Shown here: positions 26,631 through 29,099 of the stretch, in pieces
How the letters are laid out: each line of letters opens with the position of its first letter
Numbering within the stretch: the first letter of the stretch is position 1
Assembly (NCBI RefSeq): GCF_002356415.1
Contig: NZ_AP018338.1
Location: 806,001-870,000 of the forward strand
Direction of reading: 5' to 3'
DNA length: 64,000 nucleotides
DNA from: Streptococcus oralis subsp. tigurinus
Lineage (GTDB): Bacteria > Bacillota > Bacilli > Lactobacillales > Streptococcaceae
Translations under genes and position numbers: made by a program
Notes under the pieces: generated by a model
What the model was told of the DNA's origin: nothing
The model's input: only the letters and a program-made list of their open reading frames with translations
Database searches by the model: none

Positions 26631-29099
26631 ATGCAGGATAGAAATTTAGTGAATGTCAATCTGACAAAGGAGATGAAGACCAGCTTTATCGATTACGCCA
26701 TGAGTGTTATCGTTGCGCGGGCTCTTCCTGATGTTCGAGACGGTTTAAAACCTGTTCACCGCCGTATTCTTTACGGAATGAATGAACTAGGTGTTACACC
26801 AGACAAACCTCATAAAAAATCAGCCCGTATTACAGGGGATGTTATGGGTAAATACCACCCACACGGGGATTTATCTATTTATGAAGCCATGGTTCGTATG
26901 GCTCAGTGGTGGAGCTACCGTTACATGCTTGTCGATGGACATGGAAACTTTGGTTCCATGGACGGGGATGGTGCCGCCGCACAGCGTTACACAGAAGCAC
27001 GTATGAGCAAGATTGCTCTTGAAATGCTTCGTGACATCAATAAAAACACAGTTGATTTCGTAGACAACTACGATGCCAATGAGCGTGAACCCTTGGTCTT
27101 GCCGGCTCGTTTTCCAAACCTTTTGGTCAATGGGGCAACTGGTATCGCTGTTGGGATGGCAACCAATATCCCACCTCACAACTTGGGTGAAACCATTGAT
27201 GCAGTGAAGTTGGTTATGGACAATCCTGAAGTGACGACTAAGGACTTGATGGAAGTCTTGCCTGGTCCAGATTTTCCGACTGGTGCTCTTGTCATGGGGA
27301 AATCAGGTATCCATAAGGCTTATGAGACTGGTAAAGGTTCGATTGTCCTCCGTTCTCGAACGGAGATTGAGACGACTAAGACAGGACGTGAGCGCATCGT
27401 GGTAACAGAATTTCCTTATATGGTCAATAAAACCAAGGTCCATGAGCATATCGTTCGTTTGGCGCAAGAAAAACGAATTGAGGGCATTACAGCTGTACGT
27501 GATGAATCCAACCGTGAAGGCGTTCGCTTTGTAATCGAGGTTAAACGCGACGCCTCTGCCAACGTTATCCTTAACAACCTCTTCAAGATGACCCAGATGC
27601 AAACCAATTTTGGTTTCAACATGTTGGCGATTCAAAATGGCGTGCCAAAAATCTTGTCCCTTCGTCAAATTTTGGATGCTTATATCGAGCACCAAAAAGA
27701 AGTGGTTGTTCGCCGTACTCGTTTTGACAAGGAAAAAGCAGAAGCGCGTGCGCACATCTTAGAAGGTCTTTTAATCGCTCTGGATCACATTGATGAAGTG
27801 ATTCGTATTATCCGTGCTAGTGAAACGGATGCGGAAGCGCAAGCTGAGTTGATGAGCAAGTTCAAGCTTTCTGAACGCCAAAGTCAAGCTATCCTTGATA
27901 TGCGTCTTCGTCGTTTGACAGGATTGGAACGTGATAAGATTCAGTCTGAATATGATGAGTTGATTGCCTTGATTGCAGATTTGGCTGATATTCTTGCCAA
28001 ACCTGAGCGCGTGGCTCAAATTATCAAAGAGGAATTGGACGAAGTTAAACGCAAGTTTGGAGACAAGCGTCGTACGGAGTTGATGATTGGAGAAGTCTTA
28101 ACTCTTGAAGATGAAGATTTGATTGAAGAAACTGATGTCTTGATTACCCTATCTAACAAGGGCTATATCAAACGTTTGGACCAAGGTGAGTTTACCGCAC
28201 AAAAACGTGGTGGCCGTGGAGTTCAAGGTACGGGAGTTAAGGATGATGACTTTGTGCGTGAGTTGGTTTCAACCAGCACCCATGATCATTTGCTCTTCTT
28301 TACCAATAAAGGGCGCGTATACCGACTTAAAGGTTATGAAATCCCTGAATACGGTCGTACCGCTAAGGGCTTGCCAGTTGTTAATCTTTTGAAGTTGGAC
28401 GAAGGTGAGAGTATTCAGACCATCATCAACGTTGAGTCTGAACGTAGTGATGACGCCTATCTCTTCTTTACAACTCGTCACGGTATCGTGAAACGAACCA
28501 GTGTTAAAGAGTTCGCTAATATTCGTCAAAATGGACTTAAAGCCTTGAATCTCAAGGATGAAGACGAATTGATTAATGTCTTGCTGACAGAAGAAGATAC
28601 AGATATTATCATTGGTACCAAGTTTGGTTATGCTGTTCGCTTTAATCAATCAGCTGTTCGTGGCATGAGTCGTATCGCGACAGGTGTTCGAGGAGTCAAT
28701 CTTCGTGAGGGAGACACAGTAGTTGGTGCTAGTGTGATTACAAACCAAGATGAGGTTCTTATCATCACTGAAAAAGGATATGGTAAACGTACACTTGCTA
28801 CGGAATATCCTACCAAAGGCCGTGGTGGTAAAGGGATGAAGACAGCCAATGTTGCTGAGAAGAATGGTCCTCTGGCAGGTCTCCTCACTGTTAAGGGGGA
28901 TGAAGACCTGATGATTATCACAGATACAGGTGTCATGATCCGTACAAACGTTGCCAATATTTCACAAACTGGACGCTCAACTATGGGAGTTAAGGTGATG
29001 CGTCTAGATCAGGATGCTAAGATTGTGACCTTTACAACGGTTGCTGCGGCAGAAAAAGAAGAAGTTGGGACTGAAATTGAAACAGAAGGTGAAGCATAA
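26631..29099 (+). CDS. gyrA: DNA gyrase subunit A (GyrA), carrying Leu81
   Basis: DNA-cleaving subunit of gyrase, which introduces negative supercoils. 822 residues from MQDRNLV, start after GAGG. The in-frame ATG at 26616 is rejected. The active-site Tyr is residue 120 (QRYTEAR). The quinolone loop reads HPHGDLSIYE: position 81, normally Ser, is Leu (codon TTA at 26871-26873). Glu85 is unchanged. Position 114 is Gly, a known harmless variant. The GyrA-box QKRGGRG is at residues 524-530. The stop overlaps the srtA start by one base. Confidence 0.98.
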   Translation: MQDRNLVNVNLTKEMKTSFIDYAMSVIVARALPDVRDGLKPVHRRILYGMNELGVTPDKPHKKSARITGDVMGKYHPHGDLSIYEAMVRMAQWWSYRYMLVDGHGNFGSMDGDGAAAQRYTEARMSKIALEMLRDINKNTVDFVDNYDANEREPLVLPARFPNLLVNGATGIAVGMATNIPPHNLGETIDAVKLVMDNPEVTTKDLMEVLPGPDFPTGALVMGKSGIHKAYETGKGSIVLRSRTEIETTKTGRERIVVTEFPYMVNKTKVHEHIVRLAQEKRIEGITAVRDESNREGVRFVIEVKRDASANVILNNLFKMTQMQTNFGFNMLAIQNGVPKILSLRQILDAYIEHQKEVVVRRTRFDKEKAEARAHILEGLLIALDHIDEVIRIIRASETDAEAQAELMSKFKLSERQSQAILDMRLRRLTGLERDKIQSEYDELIALIADLADILAKPERVAQIIKEELDEVKRKFGDKRRTELMIGEVLTLEDEDLIEETDVLITLSNKGYIKRLDQGEFTAQKRGGRGVQGTGVKDDDFVRELVSTSTHDHLLFFTNKGRVYRLKGYEIPEYGRTAKGLPVVNLLKLDEGESIQTIINVESERSDDAYLFFTTRHGIVKRTSVKEFANIRQNGLKALNLKDEDELINVLLTEEDTDIIIGTKFGYAVRFNQSAVRGMSRIATGVRGVNLREGDTVVGASVITNQDEVLIITEKGYGKRTLATEYPTKGRGGKGMKTANVAEKNGPLAGLLTVKGDEDLMIITDTGVMIRTNVANISQTGRSTMGVKVMRLDQDAKIVTFTTVAAAEKEEVGTEIETEGEA

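What the first reader, a model, noticed from the sequence alone, without database searches (positions are those of the whole stretch)
26865..26885. GyrA has Leu at position 81, so both quinolone targets are altered
The GyrA loop reads HPHGDLSIYE with codon TTA for residue 81, normally Ser; TCA to TTA is one step. Changes at GyrA Ser81 together with ParC Ser79 are established as the high-level resistance combination. Leu is less usual here than Phe or Tyr in streptococci, though Leu is the classic change at the equivalent E. coli Ser83. Both mutations in one window strongly suggest past fluoroquinolone exposure.
Basis: partly seen in the sequence, partly recalled or inferred. Interest (0 to 1): 0.75.

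Follow-up and report, generated by a model that had tools for sequence, protein, structure and literature searches.

The report
GyrA Ser81Leu, a known quinolone-resistance mutation
A mouth streptococcus carries the well-known pair of gene changes (in DNA gyrase and topoisomerase IV) that usually makes streptococci resistant to fluoroquinolone antibiotics; the less usual leucine in gyrase is explained by the particular serine codon its gene started from, so the case is real but ordinary.

Summary
ORF 26631-29099 is an intact GyrA with TTA (Leu) at codon 81 (26871-26873), and ParC in the same window has TAT (Tyr) at codon 79 (8298-8300). GyrB and ParE are unchanged at the few residues checked. 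In GyrA, residue 81 is one of only two residues shared with at most 2 of 80 named relatives. A TTA/TTG codon at this site occurs in 2 of 284 Streptococcus species genomes. The closest gyrA 5' haplotype found, from S. oralis subsp. tigurinus, has TCA and differs over the first 317 bases only at the middle base of codon 81: one C-to-T change. TCA cannot give Phe or Tyr in one step, which explains the leucine. The same change is common in group B streptococcus, and the pair with ParC Ser79Tyr has been selected in pneumococcus. The genome also holds tet(M). No MIC exists here, so high-level resistance is inferred; past drug exposure is plausible but not shown. The two resistance codons have different nearest relatives, so they probably arose or arrived separately. 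Real, already known.

The parts
26631..29099 (+). gyrA, DNA gyrase subunit A, 822 aa, intact
26856..26885 (+). QRDR loop HPHGDLSIYE of GyrA
26871..26873 (+). GyrA codon 81 = TTA (Leu) instead of Ser; its middle base is the only difference from the S. oralis subsp. tigurinus AZ_3a haplotype (L013) over gyrA nt 1-317
8064..10544 (+). parC, topoisomerase IV subunit A, 826 aa, intact
8298..8300 (+). ParC codon 79 = TAT (Tyr) instead of Ser
4137..6080 (+). parE, topoisomerase IV subunit B; Asp435, Arg447, Ile460 and Glu474 present, no classical QRDR change at these four
7014..7832 (+). aminoglycoside 6-adenylyltransferase-like gene between parE and parC, matching the published 'ant-like' gene of viridans parE-parC regions; below the NCBIfam ANT(6) cut-off
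25450..26436 (-). ldh (lactate dehydrogenase family), divergent neighbour of gyrA
29099..29854 (+). sortase gene directly downstream of gyrA

Best explanation
This is a chromosomal target-site fluoroquinolone-resistance genotype in a mitis-group streptococcus of the S. oralis clade: GyrA Ser81Leu plus ParC Ser79Tyr. The gyrA change is a single C-to-T transition on a TCA-coded gyrA 5' haplotype like that of S. oralis subsp. tigurinus AZ_3a. From TCA one base change reaches Leu, but not Phe or Tyr. Mechanism (established knowledge, recalled, not tested here): the serine hydroxyl at this position of the recognition helix anchors the water-magnesium bridge to the drug's keto-acid. Leu in gyrase and Tyr in topoisomerase IV remove that contact in both targets, so the drug traps cleaved DNA poorly and the MIC rises more than with either change alone. 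Shown here: the codons, intact enzymes, rarity of both residues, the one-base relation to a Ser haplotype, unchanged GyrB/ParE residues where checked. Inferred: the resistance level, the order of the two changes, and selection by drug.
For: Codon and frame. ParC Tyr79. Residues shared with 2 or fewer relatives: GyrA 81 and 705 (80 relatives); ParC 79, 541, 581, 678, 693, 753, 756, 812, 824 (29 relatives); so within the first 500 residues of each protein only GyrA 81 and ParC 79. L013 has TCA, and the first 459 nt of gyrA differ at nt 242, 318, 348 and 459 only, the last three being third codon positions. Single-step table: TCA gives Leu but not Phe/Tyr; TCC and TCT give Phe and Tyr but not Leu. 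Codon 81 among 80 named loci: TCC 48, TCA 17, TCT 11, AGC 2, TTG 1, TTC 1. Literature, passages only: S81L as TCA>TTA in S. agalactiae (PMC12191815); S81L with S79Y selected by garenoxacin in pneumococcus (PMC5073217); [quoted passage not shown] GyrB Asp435/Glu474 (counted by hand on the frame printed) and ParE 435/447/460/474 are unchanged. The genome also carries tet(M).
Against: No MIC or isolate history is available. Reads were not available to exclude a base-calling error. GyrA beyond about nt 550 diverges from L013 (177 differences over the whole gene), so the TCA haplotype is a mosaic patch; the TTA allele could have been imported already mutated, although no other TTA genome was found among the 284.
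Confidence: 0.93

Rival explanations
1. The TTA allele was imported by transformation from another streptococcus that already carried Leu81, rather than arising by mutation in this lineage.
For: The gyrA gene is a mosaic: the best match is L013 (alone or tied) for nt 1-900, then L008, L005 and L003. From about 23.5 to 27 kb L013 and/or L082 match at 95-99% in most 500-base bins (91% in the bin at 25001), mostly better than the other relatives.
Against: The only other Leu genome (G055, which is the S. hohhotensis locus L008 by contig position) has TTG on a different local haplotype. No other TTA genome was found among 284 species genomes, though one genome per species says little about strains.
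Confidence: 0.3
2. parC Tyr79 and gyrA Leu81, about 18.6 kb apart here, were acquired together on one DNA fragment.
For: The two codons lie 18,573 bases apart, and the two genes stay linked at about 18-19 kb in G121, G236, G093 and G225 (coordinates).
Against: The relative with the best overall parC match around codon 79, G236 (TAT), has gyrA TCC; the nearest gyrA match L013 is Ser. Between them the best match keeps changing. No single donor seen fits both.
Confidence: 0.08
3. Leu81 is a natural, drug-unrelated polymorphism of this lineage.
For: No MIC is known.
Against: 78 of 80 named relatives have Ser, the sister haplotype is Ser, and ParC is altered at its equivalent hot spot in the same genome.
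Confidence: 0.03
4. Sequencing or assembly error at codon 81.
For: Reads not available.
Against: One contig, 99.99% complete; two separate hot-spot changes in one genome are an unlikely pair of errors.
Confidence: 0.02

Closest known systems
GyrA Ser81Leu in fluoroquinolone-resistant Streptococcus agalactiae
   Same: Same residue, same codon change TCA to TTA (PMC12191815, passages); 130 of 131 gyrA mutants, many with ParC Ser79Phe or Tyr (PMC7868321, passages).
   Different: Different species; here an S. oralis-clade genome.
GyrA Ser81Leu + ParC Ser79Tyr in pneumococcal step selection (garenoxacin)
   Same: Exactly the same residue pair; garenoxacin MIC 4-8 ug/ml against 0.03 for the parent (PMC5073217, passages).
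   Different: Laboratory selection, in which Leu appeared after Phe, not directly after Ser, according to its Table 1.
Streptococcus mitis SVGS_061 GyrA Ser81Phe + ParC Ser79Ile
   Same: Mitis-group clinical genome with both serines changed; moxifloxacin MIC 4 ug/ml (PMC4824267, text as shown, part 1 of 2).
   Different: Phe and Ile instead of Leu and Tyr.
E. coli GyrA Ser83Leu / S. aureus GyrA Ser84Leu
   Same: Serine-to-leucine at the equivalent position; S. aureus strains with S84L were very sensitive to deoxynybomycin (PMC4421842, passages).
   Different: Other genera; the equivalence of positions 81, 83 and 84 is recalled.

Membership tests
Target-site (QRDR) fluoroquinolone resistance, GyrA Ser81 class | intact GyrA orthologue with a substitution at Ser81 or Glu85 | tested here: met
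   Leu81 TTA; Glu85 unchanged
Target-site (QRDR) fluoroquinolone resistance, GyrA Ser81 class | second change in topoisomerase IV (ParC Ser79/Asp83 or ParE) for high-level resistance | tested here: met
   ParC Tyr79, Asp83 unchanged; ParE 435/447/460/474 unchanged
Target-site (QRDR) fluoroquinolone resistance, GyrA Ser81 class | raised fluoroquinolone MIC not abolished by reserpine | not testable with these tools
   no isolate
Target-site (QRDR) fluoroquinolone resistance, GyrA Ser81 class | residue differs from the serine typical of relatives | tested here: met
   78 of 80 named relatives Ser; TTA/TTG in 2 of 284 genomes
Viridans-type (VGS) topoisomerase genes | GyrA Gly114, ParC Asp91 and an ant-like gene between parE and parC | tested here: met
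   Gly114 and Asp91; PF04439 gene at 7014-7832; markers as in PMC3323274 and PMC4881901 (passages)

The most novel reading that the evidence does not exclude
A TCA-coded gyrA 5' haplotype circulates in the S. oralis/tigurinus clade and, unlike the TCC-coded majority, can reach classical resistance in one step only as Ser81Leu. Strains of that haplotype would then form a Leu-type resistance class, possibly with the collateral sensitivity to nybomycin-type compounds reported for the S. aureus Leu mutant, next to the Phe/Tyr class of their relatives.
Probability: 0.35. Interest if true: 0.3.

Novelty: already known. Interest (0 to 1): 0.13.

Why it matters
Viridans streptococci are a published source of altered topoisomerase genes for pneumococcus (PMC3323274, passages), so documenting a two-target genotype in an S. 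oralis-clade genome that stands for its species is useful. The codon-background explanation (TCA gives Leu, TCC/TCT give Phe or Tyr) would account simply for why Leu dominates in group B streptococcus and Phe/Tyr in pneumococcus. It does not change what is known about resistance.

Tried and rejected
Considered and set aside: (1) co-transfer of the parC and gyrA alleles on one fragment, disfavoured because their nearest relatives differ. (2) Extra QRDR changes in ParE or GyrB: none at the residues checked. (3) An erm-type gene: PF00398 gave one strong match (290-aa frame) and two weak partial ones, one of them just over the cut-off; none was identified further. (4) The STMK motif is unchanged in the 752-aa transpeptidase frame at L150, taken as PBP2x from recall; other PBP changes were not studied. 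(5) Naming the strain: the named loci show none at 100% and the tool says the window's own record may be left out, so only 'S. oralis clade' is given, from gyrA nucleotide identities. Efflux genes were not studied.

Led nowhere: one search's parC part used a failed anchor and its parC rows are meaningless; one search replaces them. One search failed for wrong coordinates and was replaced. One search listed no residue unique to this GyrA because L008 also has Leu81; one search repeats it with a threshold. Papers PMC105945 and PMC1932522 are not held, so these viridans surveys were not read.

An earlier count said Phe/Tyr in 8 gyrA loci; the correct number is 7. In the paper searches on this mutation I saw listings and opened 11 papers in all, of which all but PMC4824267 in passages only; in what I saw no commensal mitis-group strain with Ser81Leu is named (pneumococcus with S81L is: PMC12581615, PMC4881901, PMC5073217). 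Most subscription papers are missing, so no claim of a first report is made.

Full report
What is there. The window's ORF 26631-29099 is a complete GyrA of 822 residues, lying between a divergent lactate dehydrogenase gene and a sortase gene. At 26856-26885 it reads HPHGDLSIYE, and codon 81 (26871-26873) is TTA, leucine. The same window encodes ParC (8064-10544) with TAT, tyrosine, at codon 79 (8298-8300). The window is part of a single-contig genome of 1,889,005 bases.

Is it more than chance? One search confirmed 384 GyrA loci in named genomes and kept the best 80. In these, codon 81 is Ser in 78, Leu in one (L008, S. hohhotensis, TTG) and Phe in one (L049, S. parasanguinis). Of all 822 residues of the window's GyrA, only 81 and 705 are shared with two or fewer of those 80. 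In ParC, compared with the 29 relatives for which one search gave loci (of 59 genomes searched, own included), only Tyr79 is that rare among the first 500 residues (27 Ser, one Tyr, one Phe); the other rare ParC residues (541, 581, 678, 693, 753, 756, 812, 824) lie further on. Across 284 Streptococcus species genomes a Leu codon TTA or TTG in this motif occurs in 2, the window's genome and G055; CTN Leu codons were not searched. A Phe or Tyr codon in this motif occurs in 21 of 284 genomes with 22 matches: 7 matches are GyrA and 15 are ParC, the window's own ParC included (one genome, G260, has both).

Where the leucine comes from. The closest gyrA 5' sequence found is L013, S. oralis subsp. 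tigurinus AZ_3a, with TCA at codon 81. Over the first 459 bases the two differ at positions 242, 318, 348 and 459 only; position 242 is the middle base of codon 81 and the other three are third codon positions. Further downstream the gene diverges (177 differences in all) and other S. oralis-clade genomes become the best match, so gyrA is a mosaic, as is usual for transformable mitis-group streptococci (recalled). The simplest account is one C-to-T change on a TCA haplotype. The genetic code then decides the residue: from TCA one change reaches Leu but not Phe or Tyr; from TCC or TCT it reaches Phe or Tyr but not Leu. Among the 80 named loci TCC (48) and TCT (11) prevail over TCA (17), which fits Leu being rare in this genus survey. 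In group B streptococcus the reported change is TCA to TTA (PMC12191815, passages; the running text there swaps the gene names, the rows of its table do not), and Ser81Leu made up 130 of 131 gyrA mutants in one survey (PMC7868321, passages).

The ParC change. Near relatives have AGT (G121, G093, G225, G098, G104, G219) or TCT (G165, G170, G066, G153) at ParC codon 79; the window and G236 have TAT, and so does G094 (L086). TAT is one base from TCT but two from AGT, so the Tyr codon probably arose on, or came with, a TCT-type segment. In the 50 bases from HPHGD the TAT genomes differ from the window at 1 base, against 4-5 for the six AGT genomes just named (partly because of the codon itself), 3-4 for the TCT genomes and 2-3 for two genomes with TTT. 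This is suggestive only. G236, the best match overall around parC codon 79, has gyrA TCC, and L013, nearest for gyrA, is Ser, so no single donor seen explains both alleles although the codons lie only 18,573 bases apart.

Other contributions. GyrB Asp435 and Glu474 (counted by hand on the frame printed) and ParE Asp435, Arg447, Ile460 and Glu474 are unchanged. Efflux (PatAB, PmrA) was not studied. The genome carries tet(M): 876 bits for the ribosomal-protection family at 712652-714472 of the genome and 1512.6 bits against a Tet(M) cut-off of 1420, so by genotype a second drug class is affected. A gene like aminoglycoside 6-adenylyltransferase lies between parE and parC (7014-7832; 214 bits, under the NCBIfam cut-off of 420). 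An 'ant-like' gene there, together with GyrA Gly114 and ParC Asp91, is the published signature of viridans topoisomerase genes found in mosaic pneumococci (PMC3323274 and PMC4881901, passages); the window has Gly114 and Asp91.

How it works. From established knowledge, recalled and not tested here: this serine, with the acidic residue four positions on, holds the water-magnesium bridge through which fluoroquinolones bind the enzyme-DNA cleavage complex. Losing the serine in both enzymes raises the MIC well above the single change. [quoted passage not shown] an isolate with S81F and S79Y had ciprofloxacin MIC above 32 ug/ml with and without reserpine (PMC4881901); S81L with S79Y arose under garenoxacin with MIC 4-8 ug/ml from 0.03 (PMC5073217). 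Levels depend on background: one pneumococcus with S81L, GyrB P454S and wild-type topoisomerase IV had a moxifloxacin MIC of 32 ug/ml (PMC4881901).

Verdict. It is an already known kind of resistance in an S. oralis-clade genome; the one added point is that the serine codon of the haplotype explains the leucine.

Noticed in passing
window 6099-6926: A 275-aa ORF between parE and the ANT-like gene without a Pfam or NCBIfam match. Streptococcus sp. HMSC072G04 (L050) matches 93-97% at 6001-7000 but only 81% at 5501-6000, which suggests exchange; S. oralis-clade relatives were not fetched for this stretch.
   Followed up: partly
window 8064-26631: parC and gyrA are about 18-19 kb apart on one strand in G000, G121, G236, G093 and G225 (nearest by ParC identity; G225 is the contig of Streptococcus sp. 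WB01_FAA12), but 349 kb apart on opposite strands in G104 and 78-110 kb apart in G066, G153 and G098 (coordinates).
   Followed up: partly
L142 (genome 712652-714472): Intact tet(M) frame, over the NCBIfam Tet(M) cut-off.
   Followed up: partly
L008 / G055: The S. hohhotensis representative genome has GyrA Leu81 too, with codon TTG on a different local haplotype.
   Followed up: partly
L106 and L103 (G260): One species genome has, on two contigs, a GyrA with Phe (motif HPHGDFAIYE) and a ParC with Tyr.
   Followed up: no
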